Shown here: positions 2,648 through 51,000 of the stretch, one piece after another
Position numbering within the stretch: position 1 is the first letter of the stretch
How the letters are laid out: each line of letters begins with the position of its first letter
Source of the DNA: Cryphonectria parasitica EP155
Lineage: Eukaryota; Ascomycota; Sordariomycetes; Diaporthales; Cryphonectriaceae
DNA: 64,000 bases
NCBI RefSeq assembly: GCF_011745365.1
Contig: NW_024468911.1
Location: forward strand, 4,706,759-4,770,758
Direction of reading: 5' to 3'
Translations under genes and position numbers: made by a program
The notes under the pieces: generated by a model
Database searches by the model: none
Told to the model about the DNA's origin: nothing
The model's input: only the letters and a program-made list of their open reading frames with translations

Positions 2648-5600
2648 CTAGGCTCCAGCCGTGCCGTTCGCCTCCTTCTCTCGCTGCCTCTTGACAATGT
2701 AGTATGTGATCAGGCTCTTTGGATCGTCCCGCACGTCCTTCATGACATCCCAGAACCTGGCATCGCCCGCTCGCGCATGCAGAGCCACGCACAGCTGGAC
2801 CGCATCCATGCGGACCCCGGACTCACTGCTCTCTAGGCACCGTGCGCACAATGTCGCCATGCTACTCAGCTCGCTGTCGGTGGGCATGAAGTCCGTCTTC
2901 ATATCCACCATCTCCTTGAGCACGTGTAATCCCATGCTCAAGGAACGACAGCCGGCCGGATCACGGGCATCCACCTCGGCCATCCGCCTTGTAAGGACAG
3001 TCGCGATTTCCTGCGCATCGCCAAGCGACACCAGCTCGTCGGCCAGCAGTTCCAGACCCGAGACGATGTGTGTCCGCGCGTCATACGCCGCACGCGCGGC
3101 CAGCAGCGACTCGAGCGCCTTGGAGATGTGTGGCTGGAAGTGGTCACGATGCTTTTTGAGGAGCAGCTTGATCGTCGCCAGGATCTGTGCTTTCACGTCC
3201 TGTACCTTCTCGGGAGCGACGCCTGACTGTGGATCTTCCAGGTAGTCGAAGAGGCCCAGCAATAGTGCGTCGAATTTCTCGTCTGCAAGAGGGACCTTGT
3301 TGTCGCGAATGATGCCCTGGAACTTGCGGAGCCCGTGGACATCGAGGGTCTTGGCCTTGATCTTATTCAGCGCACTGTCGATAAGGCGCAATTGCTGCTT
3401 CGCTTTCTCAGTGGAGACATCATCCCCCTTGGCTGCTGCGTCACCATTTTGCCGTGAGACAAAGCTGGCTGCATCTTCGTTGATGGGCTTTTCCTCCAAC
3501 ACTGCTGCTGCTACTGGCCGTGGGGGGGATTGCTCTCCCGTCACAGGATCCTCGTACACCTTCAGAGACTGAGAAGGCGTCTCGCTCGGGCTCGGCACGC
3601 GGTTTCGCACGGCGGCAGCGAGCCCAGAGTCTTCAGCGGCAGCTGCCTCGGGCGACTTGCTCTCCTGCTCCTGGAGCAAGGGAGGACCCAGGCCTTCGAG
3701 AAGCGGTGATCGGATCACGGGGGTCGGCGAGTCCGCCACGTCGGCAATGTTGGGCATGTCCATAGTGAAACTTTCATCAAGCCTCGAGCTGCTCGCGAGC
3801 GGTGGCCCGAGCTGCAGCCTGGACGACCGCATCGGACTGGGGCGGGGACTCGTAGCGGGCGATGGCCTCGGGCTTGGTATTCTCGTCGGCGTGGGCAGAC
3901 TAGACTCGCTCGTCGTTGACTTGTGGCCCGGAACGACCCTAGGGACAGTGCGCTTGGGAGAGGCGATCATAGTTTTGGGGGTCACGGCCTTCCTCAGCTG
4001 CGGTGGGCTACCCAACGTGGATTCGGTGCCGCCTCTGACATCGTAAGGTCCCGCAGTCTTTGGCCGTGGAGGAATGTTCGGCCGCGTCGCAGTCCGAGGT
4101 CTCACTGGCGCCCCCGATAGACCGCCCACCTTGAGGCGTGTGGCAGCAGATGCTGCAGAAGGGGGGCCAGAGGCGTTCGAGATGCCAGACGTCGTCCGTG
4201 GCACTCGGGGTGGTGAGAACTCCATGGCTGATCCTGGCCTCGACGGACGTGACGCTTCCATGGCCGAGCCCGGTCTCGTTATGGCAGCTTTCTGCGCCCT
4301 TATTGTGTCTCGGATCGATGGTTTGGTTCCCATCGTGCTACGTGAGAATCCCAGGCCTGGGCGGACTGCGGATGCCGTATCTGGCCGCTTCGATGGATTA
4401 GGGTTGTTGGGATCTTTGTCCAGGAGCTTTTGAGCCGTCACGTCCAGGGTATCCATGAGTCTGGACGTAAGGTTAGCAGTCAATCCTGAACCACTCCTAG
4501 AGAGCATTCCCTTCTTGAAGAGTCGTGTACTTACGCATCAGCTCTTGCGGGCCATATCCCGTGGAAGAGCCAAAATGTGCCTCTCATTTTCTCCCTCACC
4601 CCCGGATTCGCATCCGCCAGCCCTCTCTTGATAGCCTTTTCTAACAATTCAAGGCCTCCTCCATGTTCAATATGGCTCTTGTGCTGTGCCTCTTTCTGGA
4701 GAAGCGTCTTCAACCACCCAGTCGCATACGTCCTGGGCTGGACATTCTTGTCTGCGCAGGCCGCTGTGAGATGATCCATGATCCGCTTGGTATAGGTTAC
4801 ACGTCCGACTATGGTATCAACGCAGACGTTTGCCTGTTGAGAAGCAATCTTCTTCGTTGCACCCGCCAGCACGATGAACGTCTGCATCAGCAGTTCTACC
4901 ATTGGGTCCATCCCGGGACCGTAGACAACAGCAATGTCCTGGACCAGGCTGCAGCCCTCTTTTGACAAACTTGTCCTCAAGGACTTGACGGCCTTGATGA
5001 TGCCGTCAAGAAGGCCTCTGAGACCTGCGAGGAAAGGATCCGCGTAGTCCGTCGGGGCGTTGCCGGCCAGTAACCTCCGGAGTTTGGTTATGCTCTGCTC
5101 TCTCAGCTTCCAGTTATGCTCGGACTCATTGCCGTCGAAGTAGCCATGCATATCTCTAAACATGTCGTCCAGCTCGCGCGTAGTATTGACGTAAGAAGGC
5201 TCGACAGGGTCCGCTCGCGTGTCGGGCGCCGGCGTAAAAGGTCGGTCGACAGACATCGTAGACAGGGATGATACGCTCGCGGTCAAGTTGGGTCGCATCG
5301 CAGGCACTGGGTCGGCAGCAGGCACATCCGCGTCGAGACCAGGTGTGGTAGCCCTCGGTATCAGCTCCTTGAGTATGGTCGTCTGCGTAGCGGGACGAAC
5401 GTTGAACTCGACCAGCTTCTTCTTCAGGTCGACCTTGGCAGGCCCAGACGAGTCTCGGAACAGCTCGATGACGGTCTTCCTGGCCGTGTCGCGGACGCCT
5501 GGGTCGCCATTCTCCAGCAGCTTCATCAGCAGCGGCACGTAGGTCTTGAACGGGAGGCCGGTCTCCTGGTGAGCCTGGAGCAGCCACTGCAGGCCTGCCT

Positions 5601-36150: not shown

Positions 36151-36955
36151 AGAATGAACTGCTCGGCAATACCCGATACGAACAAAAAGCCAAACCATCA
36201 ATTCTTCCAGAGAACATGATCCTTTGGCGGCATTCTCATTTTCTTGTTAGGTGCTCGATACACTCTCGCTGAGACACTGCCCTGTTGGACAACAGCAGCA
36301 CACCGCCAGATTCCGGCCGGGGCAAGGCTCCCAGGTAGATTGGTTTAGTGTGAGACAAACTATTAAGCTGACGGTGGGATAGCCTGTGTGGCCCGCAGCA
36401 GCTTGTGTTTCCCCAGATACATGGGAGAGGGGGGGAGAAGAGGGAGACCATGTTTGGATGGCGAGATGGGCTTATGTGGAGCGAGCGGCAAAGAGCCGCA
36501 TGATGAGATGCAGAAAAGTCCGTGGCTGGTGAGAAGTGAAACACGCCCTAATCAGGAGCATCAAGCGAGGCGTCTTTGCTTTGAATGAGAAATATTGAGA
36601 CCCTAAGAAACGCATTGGCTGGAGAGCGCATCTTGGAAATTAATCCAGTGTTCAAATGCGTTGAGGAAGCTTTATTCAGGCACTGTATTGAGGTATCTTA
36701 AGAGGGAAGGAGTCGACAGGGGAAGGAAACCCCGACAAGGATGGTGGACAGAGGCGAGGAGGGGACGATCCTCTCCCGTTCTCACACCCCTCGGGAGTGG
36801 GCGTATGTGGTTCTCTTATCTTATCGTAACGCCCAAATTTCTCCCCATACCTCATAGTTAAGAGTATCCAGCAACTCGATCAGCTAAACCACGACGACGT
36901 GCATGCATTTCAAGCAGCCAATCGCACTGCTAAAGGCCCATCATCTCAAGTGGAG

Positions 36956-38674
36956 ATGGCACCTTGCTGTGCAGGAGGCTCACCAGCCTTTCTTCCTTTC
37001 CTCTACCCATCTCTCTTTCTCGCCAGGTTCCCAAAGACAAGCAGGGCCGTCAAGGTCAGACACCATGTAACGGAGACGGCGTCGGCAGAAACAACCTCTC
37101 CGTCGTCGACATCATCTAGGCTTGACCCCAGTCCTGACGACTACTATATCACCAACTTTGCCGACAAGGCCAAGCTGAGTTTATTTGCTGGTGCTGGTGG
37201 CAATGGCTGTATCAGTTTTGCCCGCGATGCCTACTTGCCGGATGGCCCACCGAACGGAGGCGACGGCGGCCATGGCGGCAACGTCTACATCCAGGCCGCC
37301 TATGGCGAGACGTCTCTTCACAAGCTAGCACGACGACAGTTCTTCAGGGCAACGAGAGGCACCAACGGTCAGGGCGGTACTAGGTCTGGGAGGCGAGGTG
37401 AAGATCTCATCATCACCGTGCCCGTGGGCACCGTTGTTCGTGAGATCAGCCGGGAGGATCCTGAAGCAGACGAAGAATTCCGCAGACGGGCAGCACGGTC
37501 GCGCAAATCCCTCGCCGCACCAGGAGATGGGCAGTCGGAAGAAACCTCGACAGCACAGTCATCATCCTCCTCGTCAGCAGAGGAGTCACAATACGACAAC
37601 CCCGAAATCGAGAAGTGGGTGCTGTACCCAGGCATAGCCTCTTCCGAGAAGAAAAAAATCTGGATTCCCGACCTCCCCAGACGCGAGAAGCTCTTTGCTC
37701 AACCACCTGCACCTATCCAGCTTGATCTGTCCAGACCCACACGGACCCCTATTCTGCTCGCAGCAGGTGCCCTGGGCGGGCTCGGAAACCCCCACTTTGT
37801 TTCCAGGGAAGTACCAAGACCGCTGTACGCGACCAAGGGGGACAAGGCCGTCTCGATGAAGATCGAGCTGGAGCTGAAGCTTCTCGCGGACGTCGGGCTC
37901 GTGGGCCTCCCCAACGCGGGAAAAAGCACACTCGTGCGAGCCCTGACCAACAGTCGCGCGCGGGTAGGCGCTTGGGCTTTCACGACTCTGCAGCCCAACA
38001 TTGGCACCGTTGTGCTTGACAACAACCGTGGCAGGCCCATCGTCACGAGCTATCACCGGCAGGACCCGGATGAAACCTGGGAGGGGGATGTGGACGTAAG
38101 GCAGCGCAAGAGGTTTACCATCGCAGACATTCCTGGTCTGATTGAGGGTGCTCACCTCGACAAAGGTCTGGGAATTGCGTTCCTTCGTCATGTAGAGAGG
38201 GCCGGCGTGCTGGCTTTCGTGATTGACCTGAACGCCGGGAATGCGGTCGCGGCACTCAAGTCGCTGTGGAATGAAGTCGGCCTCTATGCACAGATGCGAG
38301 AGGAGCAGGAGCTGGACCGCGAACGCGAAGCGAGGATTGAATATGACCTCAAAGCAGGGCTTGATGGACCAAACTTTGGTCAAGAATGGCCGATTCACTC
38401 CGAGTATCCGTCCGCGCCGGAAAACCAAAGGGGTCTTCACATTGCAGCGAAGCCGTGGTTTGTCATCGCCACAAAGGGTGACCTGCCGGGCGCGAAGGAG
38501 AACTTCAAGGAGCTCCGAGAGTACTTGACCAAGGTGACCAACGGCGACGCGCCGCATCCCAGCGGGATTGAGAAGGCATGGATCAAGGACTGTGCGGCTA
38601 TACCAGTCAGCGCTATCAAAGGACAGGGCGTGGACAGGATCATTCACTGGACCGTGGGACTGCTGGACGACTAG
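36956..38674 (+). CDS. MTG2: Mitochondrial Obg-family GTPase (MTG2-like)
   Basis: Single exon, 572 aa from the ATG at 36956. The frame is open to 36899 through a GTG only. The N-terminus is hydrophobic and basic with few acids, consistent with mitochondrial import. An Obg glycine-rich fold begins near residue 70 (LSLFAGAGGNGCISFARD, PNGGDGGHGGNVYI, NGQGGTRSGRRGEDL) and closes with LAAGALGGLGNPHF. Between these parts lies a Ser/Glu-rich insertion of roughly 90 residues. The G domain follows, with G1 GLPNAGKST at about 317-325, G3 DIPGLIEGAH at about 391, a TKGD-type G4 and PVSAIKGQG. Family members assist assembly of the large mitochondrial ribosomal subunit on the inner membrane. The gene converges with the disrupted membrane-protein gene at about 226 bp. 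Confidence 0.9.
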   Translation: MAPCCAGGSPAFLPFLYPSLFLARFPKTSRAVKVRHHVTETASAETTSPSSTSSRLDPSPDDYYITNFADKAKLSLFAGAGGNGCISFARDAYLPDGPPNGGDGGHGGNVYIQAAYGETSLHKLARRQFFRATRGTNGQGGTRSGRRGEDLIITVPVGTVVREISREDPEADEEFRRRAARSRKSLAAPGDGQSEETSTAQSSSSSSAEESQYDNPEIEKWVLYPGIASSEKKKIWIPDLPRREKLFAQPPAPIQLDLSRPTRTPILLAAGALGGLGNPHFVSREVPRPLYATKGDKAVSMKIELELKLLADVGLVGLPNAGKSTLVRALTNSRARVGAWAFTTLQPNIGTVVLDNNRGRPIVTSYHRQDPDETWEGDVDVRQRKRFTIADIPGLIEGAHLDKGLGIAFLRHVERAGVLAFVIDLNAGNAVAALKSLWNEVGLYAQMREEQELDREREARIEYDLKAGLDGPNFGQEWPIHSEYPSAPENQRGLHIAAKPWFVIATKGDLPGAKENFKELREYLTKVTNGDAPHPSGIEKAWIKDCAAIPVSAIKGQGVDRIIHWTVGLLDD

Positions 38675-38900: not shown

Positions 38901-39550
38901 TCAAGAGGACCTCGGTGCACCACGGTCTTGGTGCGCAGTCCCTGCTGCTTCTGTGACTGCTCTCCTGAAGTCGGCGTCGCTCTTGTTCATTTCAAATTCC
39001 TCCATCTTGTCCTCATGCACTTTTCTTTTGCGAGTGAACTTCAGCATGGGTATCGAGCCGGCGATGATCCCCAAGCTGCACTCAATGACGGTCCACATGA
39101 CGATCTTGCCTGTGCTGTACAGGTAGTTATCATCTGAACTGTATGCATCTGTGTACACGGTGCGCAACACCGACGCGACGGAAGCACTTATTTGCGCCAC
39201 GTCAGTTGTCAGCTAACCGTCGAATCACAATCGGGCAAGCGTAAAATGGATTAAGGTTTTAAACTCACATGATACCGAAGCCTAGAGCCACACCCGTCAT
39301 GATCTTCGACTTGACGGCCATCTCAGGACTCCACAGCAGGAGGGTCGAGATAGTGGCCATGGCCAGGTCCGACACAACGTCAAATGCATACCCTGTCTTT
39401 GCGAGGGCAACGAAGATGTCCGAGTCCATGCAGGTCCCATCACCAGTCCAGTTCGACTGAATGGGCCTGCACTTCGCTAGCAAGGTAATAACGCCTGCGA
39501 TGCACAGCACGATGACGAGTGCAATGAGGCCCCAGACGATGTAGACGAAT
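38901..39550 (-). pseudogene. 3' part of a retrotransposon-disrupted rhodopsin-fold membrane protein
   Basis: Minus strand; the downstream remainder of the gene whose 5' part is at 47530-48069. The exon at 39550..39269 resumes codon-perfectly after one copy of the target duplication. An 82-bp intron (donor GTGAGT, acceptor ATAAG) leads to the last exon 39186..38901. The sequence shows FVYIVWGLIALVIVLCIAG, then TGDGTCMD, two more helices, and STLLLWSPEMAVKSK. GFGIIASVASVLRTVYTD spans the intron, and KIVMWTVIECSLGIIAGS precedes a charged tail. This is the layout of the fungal rhodopsin-domain/PTH11-like integral membrane family: seven helices with a conserved WxxVE near the last one. With the transposon removed, the ORF would encode 316 aa. 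The copy here has no start codon of its own. Confidence 0.85.
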
Positions 39551-39555
39551 CGTCT
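39551..39555. repeat. Target-site duplication (left copy)
   Basis: CGTCT immediately before the left LTR. It equals the 5 bp following the right LTR (47530-47534). Ty3/gypsy integrases typically duplicate 5 bp. Confidence 0.92.
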
Positions 39556-39788
39556 TGTAGAAGGCACTCTAGGGGCTGTACAAATGGTAGAAGGGAAGAT
39601 GATTCTTCAATTAATCTATCTCAAGGCACGCTTGCCAATTGCCTTCTATATAGAAGGCAATTAGCACTAGTCCCAACTGAGCTAGCGTACCTGGCGACTC
39701 ACTGCCTTTCCATTGAATGGCCCAGGCCAGTGAGTCAGGGTGGCCACCCAGGCCTCATTCACCTAAGGCCCCTATGGCCACTGCCACA
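39556..39788 (-). repeat. LTR (3' LTR in element orientation)
   Basis: 233 bp, TGT...ACA ends. It matches 47297-47529 with no difference that I could see by eye. It contains the 26-bp palindrome at 39637-39662. Confidence 0.96.
39637..39662. repeat. Perfect 26-bp palindrome inside the LTR
   Basis: The half-site AATTGCCTTCTAT is followed directly by its reverse complement, with no spacer and a TATATA centre. The second LTR carries the same palindrome at 47378-47403. The centre could serve as a TATA element in either direction. Confidence 0.9.
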
Positions 39789-39828
39789 AGTGCCGGCCAC
39801 GGAAAAACGTTCCTGCTGTCCTCAGCAG

Positions 39829-42800
39829 CTATCTAGGGGTCACGTGTCCACGTGTCAGTCTCGCGCTTCTTCGGAGGCCAGGAGAGGTCTCAGGGCCCTG
39901 TTTTCCATCCTTTTCAGGCTCAGGGAGGCCTCCAGACGCGTTGTCAGACGCGTCAATGTTGACAGCCGGGGAGGCTGTGCCCTTGGCAGGCCGACCTCGC
40001 TTCCTCCGTGCTGGCACGGCTTCTCCATCCTCATTGCCGTCAGGCAACAGTTTCTTGGAAGGCCGGCCGCGCTTTCTCTTCACGGGGTCAGCTGGGCTGT
40101 CTTTCACGAGGATTTCTGTAGCCTTGTCGGGGTGTGCGCGTTCGTATTCCTCGATGAGGCCAGGGCACTTAAGGCTTCTCAAATCCTTCCAGCGATCGTG
40201 CCGCGAGGACCATCCCTTCCATCGCACCAGATATCGCACTGTATTCTTGCCACCTCGTCGCTCGATCTTCTTGTCTACGATGCGATCGACTTCGTAGTAG
40301 TCCTCATCAGGTCCAATTGAGTCATCGCTGTCTTCGTTGTGCTCGATCGGGCCAGGCTCAGGTAGCTGGCGGTTGAAGGGGTCGTCGGTAGGCTTGTACC
40401 GACTCAGGTACTGAATGCTGACCACTGGGTGTACTTGAACGTCAGCATCACGGTCACCAGTTTTGAAGTCAAGTTCATAAGCCAAAGGTGACACTTTTCT
40501 GATGATCGTAAAAGGGCCTTCGCGAAGAGCCTGTGTCTTGTTGGCCTGGCGCAGCAGTGGCTTGTATGCCTTGCCAAGTTTTAGCCAGACTTTGTCGCCC
40601 TTCTCGTATTCTTCGTGTCGGTGTTTGGCATCGTACGTGCGTTTGTTGTCTGCTGCGACGATGTCCATAGCCAGTTGCGCGTCTTTTCGCAGGTGTTCAC
40701 GCATAAAGCGTATCTCGGACAGTTGTTTGGTGATGTTGACTAATCGGTCGGACGGTGACTGGATCTTGAATCCGAACAGAAACTCGTGAGGGCTCGCGTC
40801 AATGGAGCGTTGGTGTGAGTTGTTCAGATTCCACTGCAAAGAGGGAATTAGGTCTATCCAAACCTCGTCAGGGTGTTCAGCAGCGTGGTATCTGATAGCC
40901 AGCTCGACATCCTGATTCTTTCGTTCAGCTGCTCCATCAGCCTGAGGGTGGTGTGCTGTAGTCATCTGTAGACGCGTGCCAAAGGCCTTCCATAGGCCCG
41001 TCCAGTAGTCTGAGGTGAACTTGGCGTCGCGGTCAGAGATAATCGCTCGAGGGCATGCCCAGTCGCTCAACAGCAGCTGTCTGCCCAGGACAGCTCCCCA
41101 TTGCTTGGCTGAGTAGGTTGAGTGGCCTGGAATCAGTAGAGTCCTCTTGGAGGTCTTGCAAGTGACGGGCATCAGCGAGTTGTAGGCTTTGGAGCCTTTT
41201 ACCTGCCACGGGGTGCCTGTTGATTCGACTGAGGGCAATCCAAGGATGAAGTCGAGGGAGATCGTATGCATAGGTTCAGAGGGGGCCTGAATCGGTTGGA
41301 GTAAACCTGCTGGCTTCTGGTTTTGCTTCTTCTGAGCGCCACACTCGTGGCAGTGATCGACATACTGTGAGACAAGCAGTCGCTTCTTCCTGAAGTGAAG
41401 ACCATCCAACTCGGCCATCATGCGGTCTCTGCCAAAGTGGTGCTTATCGTCGTGTGCGTCGCGCAGAAGTTCCTGCACCAGAGGTCGTGGGACGACAAGG
41501 CGTTCTTTTCCATCATTGTCGTAGTTGTACAACAGTTGGTCCTTCAGGCGGAATGGGTGGCCGGGCTTAGAAGCAGAGACAATGTCCTCATTGTTTACCA
41601 AGGTAGGAGGCTTCTTTCCGGCTGAACCGACCTTTGTCAGGTCTGTGATGATGTTCCCATAGACTGTATCCTCCTTGTATCCTCGCCAGAAGCGCTGTCG
41701 CATATCCTCAGACATTTGTGCTTCCGACAAGACAAGGAAGACTGTGGGTAGATCATCAACTACCGTGTCGAGAGTGGCTGGTTCGTCGCTCCGTCGCGCC
41801 TCCGCATCTCCTGTTGCAGACAGCCTTGACAAGGCATCAGGGACATAGTTGAGCTTCCCAGCCAGGTGGTGAATGTCGAACTGGTACTGGCTGAGGTAGA
41901 TGGAGGCGTTGACAAGACGTCGGTTAGCACGGTCTGTAGACGAGGTGTCAAGGCGCGTTTGGGTAACGATGCCACGCGTGGCGTCGTGATCTGTGAGGAC
42001 AACTACAGGCTGCGCTTGGTTTGATTGAATCAGCTTGCGCAGGCGTTTCGTTGCCCAGACCAGACACGCAACCTCTTGCTCAGAGGGACCGTAGTTCATT
42101 TCAGCTTTCGTCAAGCAGCGGCTGAGGAACATTACTGGTTTGATAGCGTGCGAGGGGATCGGCTTGCCAGGTTGCCAGATATAGTCTTCCTTCAACTGAA
42201 AGACCATCACGCCAAATCCTCGTTGCAAGCATCCATCTACTTGGATAAACAGCTTCTGCAATGGTTCCATATGGTACAAGCGCATCTTTCTGCAGATAGT
42301 GTTCTGTAGGTCCTCGAAAGCTATCTTTTCAGCGTCTGTTGGCTCGTAGTATGTGCGACGTGTATAAGCTTGACGCTGCGACTTCTTCCCAGGTGTGATT
42401 TTTCCAAGCTTACGGCCTTCAGCCAGCAGCGCTGTCTTTCGCAGTTGAAGCGGTTCCACGAGCTGCGCGTAGTACGGGATCATCGTTCGTAGGAAACCGG
42501 TCGCGCCAAGGTAGGTTTCGAGGTCCTTGAGGTTTCTAGGGAAGGTCATCTTCCGAAAGGCCTCAGTGCGTTCCTTCGTGGTAGACAGGCCAAGCGCGTC
42601 GACATAGAAGCCAAGAAGTTCGACCGAGGGGAAACCGATGTGACTCTTTGTGGGAGAAATAGAGATTCCCTTCCTGTCGAAGATGTTCAGGGCGACGTCG
42701 AGGTGCTTCAGGTGGTCCTCAAACGAATCTGAGAAGATCACGATGTCGTCGATAAATGCCTTGACGAAGTGCCTGTGGTCACGAAGTAGCCTGTCCATAT

Positions 42801-45800
42801 ACCTCTGGGCGTGAGCTGGCGAGTTGCGGTAGCCCATCAGGGCCACTGTTGGTCGCTCAAGGCCACGGTGCGTGACCATGGTCTGACGGTCACGATACTC
42901 AGGGTGGACAGGGAACTGGTAAAAGAAAGCTGTGGCGTCGATAACCGTGATGTGCCGCTTACCGCGTATAGCCTCGATCACGTCTGACTGAAGAGGAAGG
43001 GGGTAATTATCAGGCACTGCCCACTTGTTGAGGGCCCTGAGATCTGCAACGATGCGGCCCTTTTCCTTCCCGTGTACTGTTCGCCAGACCACGAAGATCG
43101 GCAATGCGAACGGACAGACGTCGTCAGCGAACTCGAGGCGGCCAGCTTCGTGCATTTCTTCGTGCACCTGGTCGATGAACTTCTCGTCCTTGCGGGAAAC
43201 AGGGTAGCGGGGACGATTCAGTTTTGCGTGTTGCCATCCTTCCATCAAGGGGATCTTCATCATCTGGTCCTCAGGCATGTCAAGAGGGCCTTTGTTTTCC
43301 CACACAGCAGGGTACTTTTCGACAATCCTCTTGAATTGTCGAGCTTTGACCGGGTCCTGTGAACAGATGCGAACGCCGTTATCAAGGACCATTGCTGGGG
43401 CTTCGTCTGGGGCTTTGATGCCCAGGGATCCCTTGATAATGGTCGAAGGTTTCCGTATGTCGAGGTCGTGGTCGTCGGACGGTAGTGCCTCGGTATCCGT
43501 CGAGAGGTCGATGCCATAGGCCATTCCCATATCGCCGAGGGAGTGACAAACAGCGTCGCTGTAAGGCGTAGAGGACAAGCTATCCCTTAGCAGGAAATCA
43601 CCAATAGGACGTGTCTCTGTTTCTGCGCCCTTGGCTGTTGCGATGATCTCTGGCGTGAGGTCGAATTCTCCGTTCACTGCCACCTGACCAACAGGAACCT
43701 TCAATGAAGATGCGAATTGCACGCTGTGTGCACCTATCGCGTGGGTGTCGGCCGGCTGGTAGGTCGACGCCAGTCCTCCCAAGGCAGCTGCCACTGCCAG
43801 GGCCTTTACAGCGCCCTTGAAGGTAGCTTTGAACCATCCCGTGTCCTCACACTCGTGGATAGTTCCCATGCGGGTGCCTTTGGGGATCTTGACAGCTCCT
43901 TCCGTAGCGTTGTGCAGGGCTACTACAGGGGGTGAAGAAGCATCGACCTGCGCGTTCAGCGCGGTGCCGTGGGTCGATGTGAAAGAGAATGAGCGGCCTT
44001 TGGGCAGTTCAGCGTACCTCACAGCCACCTGAGCAGTCTCGCCAGGGCTGACAACATAGGCGTGGGCCATCCTCACCTTTCGCACCGTAGGTGAGAGGGC
44101 CTGACGCTGAACCTCGAAAGGCACCTGGAAGTTGCCTTGCCCTGGGTATGTGATAGCCTGGTCCTCGTAATTGATGATGGCCTTGCGGGCTTTGAGCCAT
44201 CCGTTGCCGATAAGGGCTCCAGCGGGTAGGTCATCCACGATCCATGCCCCAGCACGCTGGCACAGCAGTCCAGGAGAGCCGTCGGCACGCCTGCCACAGG
44301 CGTAGAAGTCCCATTCAGCGTATTTGGACAGCGTGATCGTGCCCTTTCCCACACCCCCGATCTTTTGAGGCTTGTGAACCGAGACCTCAGCGGCAGGGAA
44401 CTGACTGAGGAACTGTCGGTCCACCAAGTCGTGACCAGTGCCAGTGTCTTTGCAGAGGGTCATATCAGGTCCGGTGGGAGTAGCTCGTACGGTGATTTTC
44501 ATGTGAGTGTAACCGCCGATAGGCTCGTTCGGCTGCTTTTCGGGCGTGGCTTCCGTGAGGATGTCTTCATCACGGTATTGGACCGGTGGTATGCTTGTCT
44601 CAGGCGAAGTAGTTCCAAAAGACATAGCGTGCTTCAGACGTCTCTTGACCTCTTTGAAGACGTTCGTCTTCTGGTCTCGATCCTGGCAAGCGCCCACGTG
44701 CTGGAACATCTGGCTTCGAGAATCAAACTCTCTGTCACAGAAGATACACGTGCGGTTGACTGGGTGGTCGACTTCGCGTAGGTTGTAGACGCGGCCTACA
44801 GGGCTAGGCGATCGAGAGTAGTATGACGAGGTTGGCGAGGGCGATCGTCCAGGACTATCGATCCAGTGTACCTGCCTATCGCCAGGCGAAGGTAGGTCGT
44901 CACTGTCGTCCTCAGAGGGCGTGTCTTCACCCTTGTCCTCGGTAACGTTGTAGGCTTTCTTTTTGTCGGAGGTCGCTGGGCGACTCCAGTCGCGTTTCTT
45001 GCGATCCTCAGACTTGCCATCCTTCCTGGACCGATCGTAATCACGGTCGCGGTTGCGATCCCGAGGCTTGTCGCGGTTGGAGTCCCGGTTTTGGTATGAA
45101 TCGCGATCTCGAGGCTCGTACCTTGAGGAACGAGTCACGCTCTTGTCACGATAGCTTGACCGATCTTTGTCGCGGCGGTCATGACCACGATCCCTTCCGC
45201 GATCACGATCGCGGTTATCTCGACGATCTCGGTCGTCGCGGCGGTTGCTGCTGGTGCGAGAGTCGTACTTGCGGGCTGGGGAACGGTCTCGACGACTACC
45301 CTTTCCTCTGTAGTACTCAGGGTAGCGTCGATCAGCGATGTTGACCAAGATGCTCTTGGCCTGCTCGACCTCCTCCATATACTCGTCCAGGGTGTTGTAG
45401 CGACGAGGAGGGGCAAGGTGGTGCTGAATGCGTTCATCCATCTTGCTCCAGATGTCGTTCAAGGCGCCCTTCCAGTTGAGGTTCTCGCGGTCGAGAATGC
45501 CCATACCGCGCGCGTATCGGAGGTTCTTCTGGATGAACTTTCGCAGGGCAAACTCGTCCTCAGCAATGTTTCTCAAGGTCAGGTAGCTTTCGCGGAACTT
45601 TCGCGTGGCACGCGTGGGTTCCATGGCGAATCGCTGAGCCAGGAGATTGGTGACGACGCCATATCCTCCTCGACGAAGCTCGGCGCGCTTAGTGTTGGTC
45701 AACTCGTTGGTCCACCAGTAAATGGCAGCGCCTTGCAGTAAGGTGCTGAACATGCGCAATATCTCGTTCTCAATATCAGCATCATTCGTGCCATCTTTGA

Positions 45801-46728
45801 GGGACTCAAGACGGTCTAGAAAGGACCAGACATCAGTGAAGACGAGGTCCTTGCCGACTGTAACCATGCCAACATCTTCGGGGTCGTCGTATTCAGGGTC
45901 GAAGACTCCCAATTCCTCCCTCTTCATCTTGATGACGTGCTGGGTGCTTGATCGGTTCGAGAACGGGGTATCGTCGCGCTGGCTACGAGGATTGCCCGAT
46001 CCAGGTCCTGGAGGCCTGTCGGGAGGATGACGGCCACCGCTACCACTTCCCTGGTCGTCGGAGTCGTCGCCCGAGTCACCAGGGTCGCCTCCTCCAGCGC
46101 CGTAGTGAACAGTTCGTCGGGGAGCGGTTGAGCCCTGAGAGGGTCCAGGTACGGCGGGGGGTATATTACCATTGCTGACCTGAAAGCGAATATCCGAGGC
46201 AGTTGCCTCAGGGCCAAGTTTGAAGTGGCGCATCAGCTGGGCTAGCATGTCGGTCTGCCTACCGACCTGAGTATCGAGGGCTCCTTGTTTGATGGCTATC
46301 GTGGCTTGCTGGGTCTCAAGGCGAGCTACAGCGTCGGCGGTTTTCCTGATCTCCAGGTTTGCGTGCACCGCAGCCATCTTCGCGTCGTCAGCCTGCGTCT
46401 TGATGTAGCGAATATATTCCTTGAAAGCAGGGTTGTTCGAGAAGTTGGCTGGCTCTTCAAGGTCCTCGTGCTGGAGGGTGCCAGTCTCGCGTTGCGCAGC
46501 AGGGGACTCGAACAGTGCTGAGCTGTTGCCATGGTAGTCTCCCGCCTGGAACGGGTTGTCCTGACTGGCGGTCTCTTCTTCTCGAGAGGCCATCGCGTCT
46601 TCACTCGTCGAGCGTCCGTGAAGAAGTTTGGGGTCTTTGCCTAGCTGTGTCGCCAGACTGGCAGCCAGGTCGGCTGTGGTAGCACGGTGGATAGGTGGTC
46701 GAGTTGGGTTCTTTGAGAAACCGCTCAT
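39829..46728 (-). CDS. Gag-Pol-chromodomain polyprotein of the Ty3/gypsy element
   Basis: One frame of 2299 aa with no frameshift or stop between Gag and Pol. The start is the ATG at 46728. The N-terminal ~450 residues are Gag-like, helical with WWTNEL and a capsid-type region. A basic Arg/Asp/Ser-rich stretch (about 480-600) follows. A Cys2-His-Cys finger lies at 661-681, with spacing C-x2-C-x12-H-x3-C. The aspartic protease has DTG at 761-763. The reverse transcriptase catalytic FIDD is at 1325-1328. The RNase H region follows near 1490. The integrase has an HHCC-type zinc region from about 1759 and a core including SDRD at about 1898-1901. A chromodomain at about 2143-2193 (VRYLVRWKGWSSRHDRW) precedes a basic tail with AT-hook-like KRGRP repeats. 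The chromodomain and basic tail probably steer integration to particular chromatin. Confidence 0.95.
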   Translation of the reverse strand: MSGFSKNPTRPPIHRATTADLAASLATQLGKDPKLLHGRSTSEDAMASREEETASQDNPFQAGDYHGNSSALFESPAAQRETGTLQHEDLEEPANFSNNPAFKEYIRYIKTQADDAKMAAVHANLEIRKTADAVARLETQQATIAIKQGALDTQVGRQTDMLAQLMRHFKLGPEATASDIRFQVSNGNIPPAVPGPSQGSTAPRRTVHYGAGGGDPGDSGDDSDDQGSGSGGRHPPDRPPGPGSGNPRSQRDDTPFSNRSSTQHVIKMKREELGVFDPEYDDPEDVGMVTVGKDLVFTDVWSFLDRLESLKDGTNDADIENEILRMFSTLLQGAAIYWWTNELTNTKRAELRRGGYGVVTNLLAQRFAMEPTRATRKFRESYLTLRNIAEDEFALRKFIQKNLRYARGMGILDRENLNWKGALNDIWSKMDERIQHHLAPPRRYNTLDEYMEEVEQAKSILVNIADRRYPEYYRGKGSRRDRSPARKYDSRTSSNRRDDRDRRDNRDRDRGRDRGHDRRDKDRSSYRDKSVTRSSRYEPRDRDSYQNRDSNRDKPRDRNRDRDYDRSRKDGKSEDRKKRDWSRPATSDKKKAYNVTEDKGEDTPSEDDSDDLPSPGDRQVHWIDSPGRSPSPTSSYYSRSPSPVGRVYNLREVDHPVNRTCIFCDREFDSRSQMFQHVGACQDRDQKTNVFKEVKRRLKHAMSFGTTSPETSIPPVQYRDEDILTEATPEKQPNEPIGGYTHMKITVRATPTGPDMTLCKDTGTGHDLVDRQFLSQFPAAEVSVHKPQKIGGVGKGTITLSKYAEWDFYACGRRADGSPGLLCQRAGAWIVDDLPAGALIGNGWLKARKAIINYEDQAITYPGQGNFQVPFEVQRQALSPTVRKVRMAHAYVVSPGETAQVAVRYAELPKGRSFSFTSTHGTALNAQVDASSPPVVALHNATEGAVKIPKGTRMGTIHECEDTGWFKATFKGAVKALAVAAALGGLASTYQPADTHAIGAHSVQFASSLKVPVGQVAVNGEFDLTPEIIATAKGAETETRPIGDFLLRDSLSSTPYSDAVCHSLGDMGMAYGIDLSTDTEALPSDDHDLDIRKPSTIIKGSLGIKAPDEAPAMVLDNGVRICSQDPVKARQFKRIVEKYPAVWENKGPLDMPEDQMMKIPLMEGWQHAKLNRPRYPVSRKDEKFIDQVHEEMHEAGRLEFADDVCPFALPIFVVWRTVHGKEKGRIVADLRALNKWAVPDNYPLPLQSDVIEAIRGKRHITVIDATAFFYQFPVHPEYRDRQTMVTHRGLERPTVALMGYRNSPAHAQRYMDRLLRDHRHFVKAFIDDIVIFSDSFEDHLKHLDVALNIFDRKGISISPTKSHIGFPSVELLGFYVDALGLSTTKERTEAFRKMTFPRNLKDLETYLGATGFLRTMIPYYAQLVEPLQLRKTALLAEGRKLGKITPGKKSQRQAYTRRTYYEPTDAEKIAFEDLQNTICRKMRLYHMEPLQKLFIQVDGCLQRGFGVMVFQLKEDYIWQPGKPIPSHAIKPVMFLSRCLTKAEMNYGPSEQEVACLVWATKRLRKLIQSNQAQPVVVLTDHDATRGIVTQTRLDTSSTDRANRRLVNASIYLSQYQFDIHHLAGKLNYVPDALSRLSATGDAEARRSDEPATLDTVVDDLPTVFLVLSEAQMSEDMRQRFWRGYKEDTVYGNIITDLTKVGSAGKKPPTLVNNEDIVSASKPGHPFRLKDQLLYNYDNDGKERLVVPRPLVQELLRDAHDDKHHFGRDRMMAELDGLHFRKKRLLVSQYVDHCHECGAQKKQNQKPAGLLQPIQAPSEPMHTISLDFILGLPSVESTGTPWQVKGSKAYNSLMPVTCKTSKRTLLIPGHSTYSAKQWGAVLGRQLLLSDWACPRAIISDRDAKFTSDYWTGLWKAFGTRLQMTTAHHPQADGAAERKNQDVELAIRYHAAEHPDEVWIDLIPSLQWNLNNSHQRSIDASPHEFLFGFKIQSPSDRLVNITKQLSEIRFMREHLRKDAQLAMDIVAADNKRTYDAKHRHEEYEKGDKVWLKLGKAYKPLLRQANKTQALREGPFTIIRKVSPLAYELDFKTGDRDADVQVHPVVSIQYLSRYKPTDDPFNRQLPEPGPIEHNEDSDDSIGPDEDYYEVDRIVDKKIERRGGKNTVRYLVRWKGWSSRHDRWKDLRSLKCPGLIEEYERAHPDKATEILVKDSPADPVKRKRGRPSKKLLPDGNEDGEAVPARRKRGRPAKGTASPAVNIDASDNASGGLPEPEKDGKQGPETSPGLRRSARLTRGHVTPR

Positions 46729-47296
46729 AGTTAGCTCAGCTTGTCTGATTGTCTTGCCAGGGTTAAAATCAACAGTGAATCGCTGTTAATCAAGCCAATT
46801 GGCGACAAGCAACAGATGGATATGAAGGCTAGGGGATGGTTTAGGCTTCTCAGGCGAGCGTGCCGTAACCAGGGTAACTCGTGGCGTCTGCGCGAGGATG
46901 TCTATGGTGCTCGCGAGGATCAGAGTGTGCTTGCTGATTTCAACTGCCAGGGCTTCCACCAGCGACGGGGTAAAAGGAAAAAACAGCTTAGCTGTGAATG
47001 CTTGTGAATGCCCGTGGGCGTGTTTTTGATGGTTTTTTGTGGTGTTTTTGATGAAAACGCCTGTTTGCGAGGTCTCAGGTGAGCGTAACGCGTCAGGGAA
47101 GTCCGTGGCACAGTCTCAGGTGAGCGTGGTGCCAAGGGCTTGTTGTTTTGGTGCCACGATCTTCACGATAGTGGGCTTTTGGTGTTTTTGGGTTGCCAAG
47201 GCCGCTGATTTCCCAGGTGGGCGTATCAGCGCAGTGGCTTCGTGGGGTGAATCCTCAAGGAATTCCTCAATGCAGTGTATGATCGTAGCTACCACT
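46729..47296 (-). other. Retrotransposon 5' leader with short repeated motifs
   Basis: 568 bp between the 5' LTR and the polyprotein start. On the plus strand, TCTCAGGTGAGCGT occurs at 47073-47086 and 47114-47127. A one-base variant is at 46848-46861 and a looser copy lies near 47211-47224. GTGTTTTTGATG also recurs near 47019 and 47041. I see no separate protein here. It probably serves packaging or translation control. Confidence 0.6.
47281..47294 (-). other. Candidate primer-binding site
   Basis: In element orientation the sequence TGGTAGCTACGATC begins two bases after the 5' LTR. TGG at this place is the usual complement of a tRNA 3' CCA end. The specific tRNA is not identified. Confidence 0.55.
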
Positions 47297-47529
47297 TGTA
47301 GAAGGCACTCTAGGGGCTGTACAAATGGTAGAAGGGAAGATGATTCTTCAATTAATCTATCTCAAGGCACGCTTGCCAATTGCCTTCTATATAGAAGGCA
47401 ATTAGCACTAGTCCCAACTGAGCTAGCGTACCTGGCGACTCACTGCCTTTCCATTGAATGGCCCAGGCCAGTGAGTCAGGGTGGCCACCCAGGCCTCATT
47501 CACCTAAGGCCCCTATGGCCACTGCCACA
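47297..47529 (-). repeat. LTR (5' LTR in element orientation)
   Basis: 233 bp, matching 39556-39788. It carries the same TATATA-centred palindrome and should contain the element's promoter. Confidence 0.96.
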
Positions 47530-47534
47530 CGTCT
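47530..47534. repeat. Target-site duplication (right copy)
   Basis: CGTCT directly after the right LTR, identical to 39551-39555. Confidence 0.92.
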
Positions 47535-48069
47535 CTCCTTATCGATCCGCTTCAGAGTAATGAGGATGCTAGTCTTTATGAACACGAGGTTGATCGTGTA
47601 AAAGATCTGCCAGAGAAAGAGATACTGGAATCACAATGTTTGTCAGATCAGGACCACAGGCGACGTTTGACGGGCTGAGAAGGGGTCGCAAACCTTCTTG
47701 CCCTCGCGCTGCAGCTCAGAGTTGAGCTTCGAGTCCGGCGATCCAATGCCCACGAATGTCCCATGCATCACGATGGCATTCTGCACCAAATTGACAACCT
47801 GAGCGAGGACGAAGATTAGCCTTGCTAGGGTCCCCTCGAGCGCTACGCCGGTAACGTTGAGATCACAGCAGGGAGGGTGAACTTGCCAGTGCCGTACACA
47901 TCAGGTAGTCATCGTTGCCAAGCTGTTTGCTCCGGAACCTCAGCCAGGTTCGGAAGCCGACTACATTTGTCGAGATGATAGTGAAAGCGAACGTGACGCC
48001 AAAAATGGCTGCGGCAAACCTTTCAGGCTCGAGAAGATCGGCCAGATACTCAGAGGCGAGCGCAGCCAT
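47530..48069 (-). pseudogene. 5' part of a retrotransposon-disrupted rhodopsin-fold membrane protein
   Basis: Minus strand. Exon 1 is 48069..47887 (MAALASEYLADLLEPERFAA...), exon 2 is 47798..47694, and exon 3 starts at 47624 and runs into the right target duplication at 47530. Exon 1 ends CACTG and the 88-bp intron begins GCAAGT, a GC-AG intron. It has branch GGCTAATC and acceptor GCTCAG. Exon 2 (VVNLVQNAIVMHGTFVGIG) ends before GTTTGC, and a 69-bp intron leads to YLFLWQIFYTINLVFIKTS. Exon 3 would continue in frame into the exon left of the element. Translation from this start now enters the LTR after about 128 codons and stops about ten codons later. The family is the fungal rhodopsin-domain/PTH11-like integral membrane proteins. 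Ligand and role are unknown. Confidence 0.85.
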
Positions 48070-51000
48070 GTTGAAGAACGAACGAAGGAAGGGAAACGAA
48101 TGGAAGTGAACGAATGAGAGAAAGAGGTAGCGAGTGAGTGAATGAGTGGATGGATGGAGGGATGGATAAACGAATGTATACTGAGATTGAGGCCTCACAG
48201 TCCCTGCTGCGCGCTACCGAGACCAGAGCTGAGGACTGGATGCCAAAAGGGAGAGAGACTCTCTTCTCTCACAAGCCAGCATGAGGATGCATGGCATCCT
48301 TTTAATGAGCCTGAAAACACATGCCATGCCTCGCAATATAATAACATTCTCTATGTTATAGCAGAAACAAAGTGGTACTAGGGAGGGAGTGTCCACTTTA
48401 TTCTCCCGGGAGGTCGTCTCCGTCCCTCCTCCCCTTTTCCTCACCATCCCTTGCCCCCCGCTCCGGTGGTCCATAGCATAACGTTGATAGGCTCTATGCC
48501 TCTCCCTGGCCAAGATGCACGAATGGTAGTAGCATATAAGGAGAGAAAACGGCTTGGGGGCGCTTTAAATAGGTGCATGATGGTGCATGTCAAAGCACAT
48601 CGTGGACCACTTCAGGACAGGGGTCGTTGCCGTGGGGTCGATCCGTTCATCCTGTTTCGAAACACCCGCCTTTATGCCGGGATCTCAACAAGGGGATCTG
48701 TTAGGCATAAATCAATTTTGATCTCCGAGACCCAAGCATGCACTACCCCAGGTTTGTGCAAGGTGCCTGGTAATTTCTCGAAGACTTACTTTGTTGCGAC
48801 TGTGGTGGTTTTAAGCATATGTATTGAAAGCCTCCAGACTTTCTAGACTTGTGAAGGCAAGACACTACCCCAAACTACAGAGCAAAGAGAGAAGAAGAAG
48901 AGAATGAATAAAAAGGAAAGACAGTCTTGTAATGAGGGGTAGGAAACCCAAAAAGTCTCTTGAGTTTCGGATCCAGTTCATGCCTGACGCCGCACCCTGG
49001 CGAGCGTTGAAATGCATCGTGAGAAGACTGTCGCCCTCTCTGCTCAATTTACTGGCACTTTCGATGCGCATCAATCAATGTTTTCTACTGCAAAAGATTG
49101 GACTATACCTCTGTATATATACATGTTGTCACAATACACATGAAAAAGATCCTGTAATTAGCAGCCAGAACATTAAACTCTATTTTCTAAAGGTTCAGCC
49201 CATAATACTGACTTCGTCTACAACCTTGGAACACAACAGATATTTGTGTGGGATTCAGCATTGAAACATCACAATGTCATGGGAATGTTGATTGCACGTA
49301 AAACTCCCGATCCTCATCTTTCACTTTGACAGGTCACGTTGGTTATGAATATACAACCAGCAAAATCACCCTGGGCAGTAACATACGAAAACCTGAATTG
49401 ATGTTGACAAAGAGTCATCTTTACTCTCCAATATCTCCTCTATATGCGCCTTTATCTCAGACCAATGGTTCTCTAAAGTACTTCAAGTGAGGCGATGATT
49501 TACTGGTTCTGAACTTGGAGCTATATCATCTTTTTTCATCTTTTTCCCTTTTTTTCACTCCTTTTTTTTCCTTTTTGGAATCATAGAGTGACGCCCTGTT
49601 TCAAGGCCTTTAAAGACACCGATATTGCCGCGAAAACGTGCAGCAATGTGTAGCATTGCATCAGAAAGTATTAACTAGAGGAAGCGAACGAGACAGCTCA
49701 TATATCCAATAATGATCATACTACTGACACTTGTTGGGCCGCACAAAGCGGCCTATATCGAAGGAATGTTATTAAGCCTAATATCACTCGGCTGTCCGTA
49801 GAGTGAAAAGTGCAAACTCTATTACAACCACCCCAGAATTGTCATCGGATCCCAGAGGAGTGAATCCAGTGTGTATTACGCGCCCAAGCCTCAGACCTTG
49901 TACTGGTCAGCTTGCGGATCCAACGGGCCGAGCCTGATCGAATGTCGGGTGTCACCAGTGTGTCGGTGAGATCAGTTACATCGTCTCTTACAATTAATAT
50001 GCATATTCACACAATTGACGTGCCATATATATCACAAGCTGAGGACTCGCTAGCCTGCAAGTTAATAGACGATCGCCCGCAGCTTCGCTTCGAGTGAGTC
50101 TAGGAGCAAGTTTTGGGGGCAGACTGATGAAGTGTTCCCTCTAGTCTGACGCCTTAGAGTTACAGTGCAGATGATCGCTGTTTGCCCTCCTTCCCCTTTT
50201 CCCTTGGCCCCACATCCCGGAACCACCCGCTAGATATTGACTGAAAGTTTGGTACAGGAACCTTGAAGAGATCAAGACAATACGAACTATATACCCTTCT
50301 CAAAGGGCATCTCATAACCAATGAATTCTTCTGCACTAAGAGACCGCAGGCATCAAGTTGATCAACTCTACTATCGATCTTCATTTAGGATACTGAACAT
50401 GGCCACGAGAGTCAGTAATTTTCCCCATGATGTAATTCATTCTCTCAGGATCGAATGAAAGTGCATATATAGATTCTTATACATATACGATCCCGTTATA
50501 AATTGACAAGCTGAATCACGCTAGGGCCCGATCATCATGGTCCAAGGCAGCAGGGCTCATGGCAACGAGCTCAAGCTGCTTCGTCTTGTGCGTTTCTCCT
50601 TGTCAAGCGTGTACCAGCCTCGCATCGTGTTTGCGAAGCGCTGCATTCAGCGGTGAAACGGAAGCCCAAGAGTAGTCGGCCCAAGATTGGTCGTCGACAC
50701 TTCGTATTCTGTTCTAGAACTGTTGCTTCTGGCTTATTTATAGCATCTTCGTGCAGGAAGCGGTGTAGGTTCGACATTCCAGCGCGAGAGCTAGGCGTGT
50801 TCATCACCGCCAGGCGCGGGCTATTAGCGGGCGTGTGGCCATTCAAGCCATGTGCTGTCGTAGCTACGTGTTGCGCTTCCCCCAAGACAATACGCCGTGC
50901 GCTAGCTGAAAAAGCTGTACCATAGAAATGATCACCCAGCGGGAAGCCGGCCGGGTGGTTACGAAGGCTAAATATAGAACATTTATGACGTAGTAGCCAG

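What the first reader, a model, noticed from the sequence alone, without database searches (positions are those of the whole stretch)
38901..48069. Recent LTR retrotransposon insertion splits a coding exon of a rhodopsin-fold membrane protein gene
The host gene reads in frame on both sides of the element. Exon 3 (47624..47530) ends two bases into a codon, and 39550 supplies the third base when the transposon and one CGTCT copy are removed. The LTRs look identical, the TSD is perfect and the internal frame is open, so the event is recent and the gene was probably functional just before it. Element and gene share orientation. Upstream transcripts therefore run into the LTR and stop after about ten codons. 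The LTR could in turn drive the 3' half.
Basis: partly seen in the sequence, partly recalled or inferred. Interest (0 to 1): 0.78.

Follow-up and report, generated by a model that had tools for sequence, protein, structure and literature searches.

The report
Jumping gene splits a receptor gene
In the reference strain of the chestnut blight fungus a virus-like jumping gene has landed inside, and very probably switched off, a receptor-like membrane protein gene that related fungi keep whole; this is a clean example of an ordinary kind of mutation, worth knowing because the strain is used as the wild type.

Summary
A 7,974-bp chromodomain Ty3/mdg4 ("gypsy") retrotransposon (39556-47529, minus) has two identical 233-bp LTRs, a 5-bp CGTCT duplication and an open 2,299-codon frame. 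It sits inside exon 3 of a four-exon gene (48069-38901, minus). Searched apart, the two gene pieces (127 and 190 aa) align without gaps to residues 1-127 and 127-315 of one Coniella protein (80% and 76% identity) and to the two halves of Pfam Fung_rhodopsin: a Pth11-type seven-helix membrane protein cut between helices 3 and 4. Contig length and a protein record identify the genome as Cryphonectria parasitica EP155; that 124-aa record covers only sequence downstream of the insertion. The element family looks young: another copy is identical over all 7,974 bp, while two hypermutated copies (98% C>T/G>A) otherwise differ from it by only 29-32 substitutions. The insertion most likely made a loss-of-function allele. 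Its age, spread among isolates and any LTR-driven transcript are untested, and LTR identity is a poor clock here (a hypermutated copy also has identical LTRs). 230 resequenced isolates exist for the test. Ordinary in kind, useful in detail.

The parts
47887..48069 (-). exon 1 of the interrupted gene (start codon at 48069-48067)
   Evidence: aligns without gaps to P0001
47799..47886 (-). intron 1, GC-AG type (GCAAGT...CTCAG), 88 nt
   Evidence: this reading gives the orthologues' protein sequence; the GT-AG reading tried gives 11 extra residues
47694..47798 (-). exon 2
47625..47693 (-). intron 2, GT-AG, 69 nt
47530..47624 (-). exon 3, 5' part, ends two bases into a codon at the element
47530..47534 (.). 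target site duplication, copy upstream in gene sense (CGTCT on +)
47297..47529 (-). 5' LTR, 233 bp, TG...CA
47287..47294 (-). primer-binding-site-like TGGTAGCT, two bases after the 5' LTR
   Evidence: sequence; match to an initiator tRNA-Met 3' end is recalled, and a tRNA pattern search found nothing
39829..46728 (-). single open frame, 2,299 aa: RT, RNase H, integrase zinc-binding, SH3-like, chromodomain
39556..39788 (-). 3' LTR, 233 bp, identical to the 5' LTR; TATATA at LTR nt 137
39551..39555 (.). target site duplication, copy downstream in gene sense (CGTCT on +)
39269..39555 (-). 'exon 4': the 3' part of the same original exon 3
39187..39268 (-). last intron, GT-AG, 82 nt
38901..39186 (-). 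last exon, stop codon 38903-38901

Best explanation
A recently active chromodomain-bearing Ty3/mdg4 LTR retrotransposon inserted by its integrase into exon 3 of a Pth11-type seven-helix receptor-like gene of Cryphonectria parasitica EP155, duplicating five bases. The gene has orthologues in other Diaporthales and no close second copy in this assembly. The element reads in the same direction as the gene and separates the coding sequence for helices 1-3 from that for helices 4-7. Transcripts entering from the gene promoter meet an in-frame stop 11 codons into the 5' LTR and probably end at LTR signals, so the strain is very probably null for this protein. Shown: insertion, duplication, frames, homology and copies of the family. 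Inferred: loss of function, transcript fate, and that the event is recent within the species.
For: Identical LTRs and 5-bp duplication. Open pol with RT-RNaseH-integrase-chromodomain order. Gene pieces searched apart: Fung_rhodopsin profile 2-85 for the 5' piece (E 1e-12) and 89-233 for the 3' piece (E 1.3e-24); P0001 of Coniella lustricola residues 1-127 and 127-315 without gaps. 24 of 24 aligned homologues have residues on both sides of the junction (P0036 lacks the stretch just after it). No close second copy: the best other match is 31% over residues 2-122 of the 3' piece, and a distant relative on the same contig (about C3:1.8215-1.8226 Mb) matches both pieces at 31-45%. Stop after 11 LTR codons. 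Seven helices in the orthologue's model, junction residue 127 between helices 88-123 and 130-152. Genome identity: contig C3 has 5,282,195 bases, the contig length listed for EP155 protein M406DRAFT_70126, whose 124 residues are all identical to the 3' piece, with 24 residues skipped. Young family: L019 identical over 7,974 bases; of the mismatches of L021 and L022, 1,609 of 1,641 and 1,553 of 1,582 are C>T or G>A.
Against: No other isolate's DNA was available, so an empty site was not seen. LTR identity over 233 bp is a weak clock: L020, hypermutated and 14% different overall, also has 0 differences between its two LTRs. If this copy is the parent of L019, their identity does not date this insertion. 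Expression and phenotype are unknown. Intron 1 needs a non-canonical GC donor, so the gene might already have been weak before the insertion.
Confidence: 0.9

Rival explanations
1. The insertion is older and fixed in C. parasitica; LTR identity reflects chance over a short LTR or gene conversion among copies, and the gene has been dead for a long time.
For: 0/233 allows up to 1.3% divergence. L020 keeps identical LTRs although its inside is hypermutated. L017/L018 differ from this copy mostly in two blocks, which suggests that lineages exchange sequence. Other isolates were not examined.
Against: No stop or frameshift in the 317 codons of the two pieces. The element lacks the hypermutation that hit L020-L022. 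0 of 7,974 differences to L019.
Confidence: 0.15
2. The insertion changes rather than ends the gene: the 3' LTR promoter drives a shortened protein from the first in-frame ATG in the 3' half, as in the annotated 124-aa model.
For: TATATA at LTR nt 137 and no ATG between it and the LTR end; an in-frame ATG lies 126 nt after the element. EP155 model M406DRAFT_70126 starts there.
Against: An out-of-frame ATG comes first, 115 nt after the element. The product would lack helices 1-4. The model skips 24 residues that orthologues have and looks like a gene-prediction compromise. No transcript was seen here.
Confidence: 0.05
3. Assembly artefact: a repeat copy wrongly placed in an intact gene.
For: An identical 7,974-bp copy exists elsewhere (L019), and identical repeats are hard to assemble.
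Against: Both junctions carry a target duplication specific to this site, CGTCT against CCCAC at L019. The public gene model is of the same assembly and so no independent check.
Confidence: 0.02

Closest known systems
Chromoviruses: chromodomain-containing Ty3/mdg4 (gypsy) LTR retrotransposons of filamentous ascomycetes (Metaviridae)
   Same: TG...CA LTRs, 5-bp duplications, RT-RNaseH-integrase order, C-terminal chromodomain. The RT region is 67% identical to a protein of an unnamed source; the first hit with an organism name is Chaetomium globosum CHGG_08393 at 59% (best 120 of 285 hits listed)
   Different: No named relative was compared as a whole element. One 2,299-codon frame, in which Pfam recognised neither gag nor protease
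Pth11-related receptors / Pfam PF20684 Fung_rhodopsin
   Same: Both gene halves match the profile; a Diaporthales orthologue is modelled with seven helices; distant Fusarium homologues are named 'related to integral membrane protein PTH11' (P0033, P0034)
   Different: No CFEM domain was found in either piece; most of the family also lacks it (46 of 296 have it, PMC5526305, passages seen)
[quoted passage not shown] parasitica (PMC8545091, passages)
   Same: Two adjacent inverted copies carry C>T on both strands at 15-51% of cytosines, by context
   Different: In L021 CpG is hit most (0.51), then CpA 0.44, CpC 0.36, CpT 0.16, without the strong CpA bias of Neurospora RIP (that bias is recalled). 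The copy in this window shows none

Membership tests
Chromovirus (Ty3/mdg4 LTR retrotransposon) | direct LTRs with TG...CA ends and short target duplication | tested here: met
Chromovirus (Ty3/mdg4 LTR retrotransposon) | order RT - RNase H - integrase | tested here: met
   RT 1224-1375, RNase H 1491-1615, integrase zinc-binding 1746-1801, SH3_Tf2-1 2044-2111 (below its cut-off, 28.5 against 30); the integrase catalytic core itself gave no Pfam match
Chromovirus (Ty3/mdg4 LTR retrotransposon) | chromodomain at the end of integrase | tested here: met
   PF00385 at 2145-2197, E 7.5e-11
Chromovirus (Ty3/mdg4 LTR retrotransposon) | gag and aspartic protease | tested here: inconclusive
   no Pfam match upstream of RT; not pursued further
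Chromovirus (Ty3/mdg4 LTR retrotransposon) | tRNA primer-binding site after the 5' LTR | tested here: inconclusive
   TGGTAGCT two bases after the LTR; host tRNA not found with a recalled pattern
Pth11-related receptor (PF20684) | Fung_rhodopsin domain | tested here: met
   both pieces above the curated cut-off of 27 bits: 48.5 and 87.5
Pth11-related receptor (PF20684) | seven transmembrane helices | tested here: met
   in the model of the orthologue P0001, mean pLDDT 83; the interrupted gene itself was not modelled
Pth11-related receptor (PF20684) | signalling through a G protein | not testable with these tools
Retinal-binding rhodopsin | retinal-linked lysine in helix 7 | not tested
RIP | C>T and G>A changes on both strands of repeated DNA | tested here: met
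   L021 1,609 of 1,641 and L022 1,553 of 1,582 mismatches against this copy
RIP | strong CpA preference as in Neurospora (recalled) | tested here: not met
   CpG 0.51 and CpA 0.44 in L021, 0.49 and 0.43 in L022; so 'RIP-like'
RIP | premeiotic, dependent on the RID methyltransferase | not testable with these tools
   a rid orthologue is reported (PMC8545091 passages)

The most novel reading that the evidence does not exclude
The laboratory reference strain of the chestnut blight fungus is a natural knockout of a receptor-like gene that Diaporthales keep, made by a retrotransposon family still moving faster than RIP removes it. The allele is absent from many other isolates, so part of what is called wild type in this species is a transposon mutant.
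Probability: 0.55. Interest if true: 0.45.

Novelty: new member of a known kind. Interest (0 to 1): 0.34.

Why it matters
EP155 is the sequenced reference and a laboratory wild type of the species. A disrupted receptor-like gene with a misleading 124-aa model affects orthology and gene-loss analyses that use this annotation, and means that strain comparisons may differ at this locus. The locus is also a ready marker of retrotransposition: four compact copies with identical LTRs and no heavy hypermutation (this one, L017, L018, L019) coexist with hypermutated relatives (L020-L022), so the balance between transposition and RIP can be tested directly in the resequenced populations. In kind it is an ordinary insertional mutation.

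Tried and rejected
A close second gene copy in the genome was sought and not found. An intact Cryphonectria protein was sought with the Coniella orthologue as query: 39 hits, none named as Cryphonectria, 12 of them without a name. Of all 53 proteins, only EP155's own P0015 is identical to a gene piece over its aligned residues (84% with its gap counted); all others are below 88% to either piece, so none looks like an intact allele. DNA collections of fungi are not held, so no empty site could be looked for.

A bidirectional role for the 34-nt TATA palindrome of the LTR (32 of 34 self-complementary) is unsupported: across 37 other LTRs (L044, partial, left out) it is not more conserved than the rest (1.88 against 1.59 differences per site; rank 126 of 200 windows). 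Other insertions as gene breakers: frames of 60 aa or more next to L017, L018, L019, L023, L024 and the nested pair L025/L026 were listed (8 frames, none at L017 or L018) and 4 of the 8 were scanned with Pfam. L023 lies beside an NmrA-like frame and L025 beside a Zn2Cys6 frame; no split coding exon was shown, but this check was coarse. A first exon 1/exon 2 boundary (GT-AG) left 11 extra residues against the orthologue and was replaced by the GC-AG reading. Pattern search for the initiator tRNA found nothing. Foldseek gave no match at E 0.001 or better.

Searches for a published report of this insertion (PubMed Central papers only) showed none by title or abstract start: 6 of 6 listed; 30 of 76; 15 of 4,610; 20 of 39; 20 of 50; 7 of 7; 12 of 149; 0 found; 4 of 4. 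The EP155 genome paper (Crouch 2020, seen only as a reference) and supplementary tables were not read.

Full report
WHERE IT IS. The window lies on contig C3 (5,282,195 bases) of a 43.8-Mb genome in 17 contigs. Among the homologues of the 3' gene piece is protein M406DRAFT_70126 of Cryphonectria parasitica EP155: 124 aa, listed on a contig of 5,282,195 bases, with all 124 residues identical to our piece and 24 of our residues skipped. I therefore take the window as scaffold 3 of the EP155 reference assembly; this is an inference from length and identity.

THE ELEMENT. Two 233-bp LTRs (39556-39788 and 47297-47529) are identical and begin and end TG...CA; CGTCT flanks the whole on both sides. 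The 7,974-bp element reads on the minus strand. One frame of 2,299 codons (46728-39829) holds RT, RNase H, an integrase zinc-binding domain, an SH3-like domain (just under its cut-off) and a chromodomain in that order, which places it with the chromodomain Ty3/mdg4 elements. The RT region has 285 homologues at E 0.001 or better (120 listed); the best is 67% identical and from a source without names, and the first with an organism name is Chaetomium globosum at 59%.

THE GENE. On the minus strand a start codon begins at 48069. Exons 48069-47887, 47798-47694 and 47624-47530 give 127 codons plus two bases; after the element, 39555-39269 and 39186-38901 give 190 codons to a stop. The two pieces were searched separately. 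The 5' piece matches Fung_rhodopsin positions 2-85 and the 3' piece positions 89-233. Against the Coniella lustricola protein P0001 (316 aa), the 5' piece covers 1-127 with 101 of 127 identities and no gap, and the 3' piece covers 127-315 with 143 of 189 identities and no gap. The two ranges share residue 127 because the duplicated bases are read in both pieces. All 24 homologues in the alignment have residues on both sides of the junction. The gapless fit needs a GC-AG first intron; the GT-AG reading tried first adds 11 residues. The pieces carry no stop or frameshift. No close second copy is in the assembly: of 24 matches to the 3' piece two are the gene itself and the best other is 31% identical over residues 2-122, with short pieces up to 43%; for the 5' piece three of five matches are the gene itself and two are partial, at 30% and 45%. 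A distant relative near C3:1.8215-1.8226 Mb is hit by both pieces.

THE FAMILY IN THE GENOME. The LTR plus adjoining sequence gave 73 matches, of which 40 are long and 33 are 30-35-base matches to the LTR palindrome; 40 of 64 candidates were scored, so the copy number is a lower bound. Besides the window I fetched 32 stretches that hold the other 38 long matches: six compact full-length copies, and others with solo, nested or unpaired LTRs. With the window copy, 7 of 7 compact copies have perfect 5-bp duplications, as do 4 of 4 pairs 15-42 kb apart (taken as nested) and 12 of 15 solo LTRs (L036, L042 and the partial L044 lack one; L035 lies in a T run, so its TTTTT means little; L045-L047, without a partner, were not counted). 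L019 (another contig) is identical over all 7,974 bases with its own duplication CCCAC. L017 and L018 have LTRs identical to the window's, differ from the window copy at 229 and 221 sites concentrated in two blocks, differ from each other at 8 sites, all C>T or G>A, and share one premature stop at codon 1,558. L020 is 86% identical, with 775 of 1,099 mismatches C>T or G>A and no frame above 321 codons, yet its two LTRs are identical to each other. L021 and L022, an adjacent inverted pair, are 79-80% identical; 1,609 of 1,641 and 1,553 of 1,582 mismatches are C>T or G>A, leaving 32 and 29 others (L021 also has 33 gap columns), and their LTR pairs differ at 23 and 27 sites. The hit rate per context is CpG 0.51, CpA 0.44, CpC 0.36, CpT 0.16 in L021, and similar in L022. 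This is RIP-like hypermutation with a relaxed context; RIP and a rid orthologue have been reported for the species (PMC8545091, passages).

AGE. LTR identity alone bounds divergence only below 1.3% (95%), and L020 shows that identical LTRs occur in a hypermutated copy too. The identity with L019 bounds the split of those two copies below 0.04%, but if the window copy is the parent it does not date this insertion. That neither copy carries the hypermutation seen in L020-L022 suggests movement since the last effective RIP cycle; this is an inference, since how often RIP acts in this lineage is unknown. A population study reports over twofold variation in TE counts at polymorphic sites among isolates and suggests increased TE activity in one lineage (PMC7935491, section 10 read), which fits.

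HOW IT WORKS. From the gene promoter the reading frame enters the LTR and stops after 11 codons, giving a 138-aa product with three helices if any. Downstream, the 3' LTR carries TATATA; the first ATG after the element is out of frame (115 nt) and the next, at 126 nt, is in frame. That is where the EP155 model starts, so the public model probably describes the stump, not a gene. RNA-seq exists in which about 20 of 104 transposon sequences had significant expression (PMC4182546, passages), but I could not see whether this element is among them.

LIMITS. No isolate other than EP155 was examined. Loss of function, transcript fate and phenotype are inferred.

Noticed in passing
L017 and L018 (G000:C6:2081100-2090900; G000:C3:3321000-3330800): Two copies at different sites share the same premature stop at codon 1,558 of the frame and have identical LTRs, so a copy with a broken frame seems to have moved, with help from intact copies or by read-through.
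   Followed up: partly
L017/L018 against window 39556-47529: About 220 differences lie mostly in two blocks (element nt 800-1600 and 3600-4800), and L020 carries the L018 state at 178 of 221 of them: a mosaic, as from template switching between lineages.
   Followed up: partly
L020 (G000:C7:2857700-2867500): Hypermutated copy, 14% different from the window copy, whose two LTRs are nevertheless identical to each other.
   Followed up: no
L021/L022 (G000:C1:7361500-7380000): Adjacent inverted pair of copies with 98% C>T/G>A differences; CpG is hit somewhat more than CpA, unlike classical Neurospora RIP (recalled).
   Followed up: partly
window 47799-47886: Intron 1 of the receptor gene appears to be a GC-AG intron.
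   Followed up: partly
window 39556-39788 and 47297-47529: A 34-nt near-perfect palindrome centred on TATATA in the LTR; not more conserved than the rest of the LTR across 37 other LTRs.
   Followed up: yes
L023 (G000:C6:930300-932400): Solo LTR identical to the window LTR with duplication ACTGC, beside an NmrA-like open frame: LTR-LTR recombination also happens in the young family.
   Followed up: no
L025/L026 (G000:C5, about 1217000-1235500): LTR pair 18 kb apart with matching CCCAA duplications (probably a nested insertion), beside an open frame with a Zn2Cys6 domain.
   Followed up: no
window 48750-49750: AT-rich stretch (GC 0.39-0.44 in 250-nt windows) upstream of the receptor gene.
   Followed up: no
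window 36899-38674: Neighbouring gene on + encodes an Obg-type GTPase (GTP1_OBG, MMR_HSR1).
   Followed up: no
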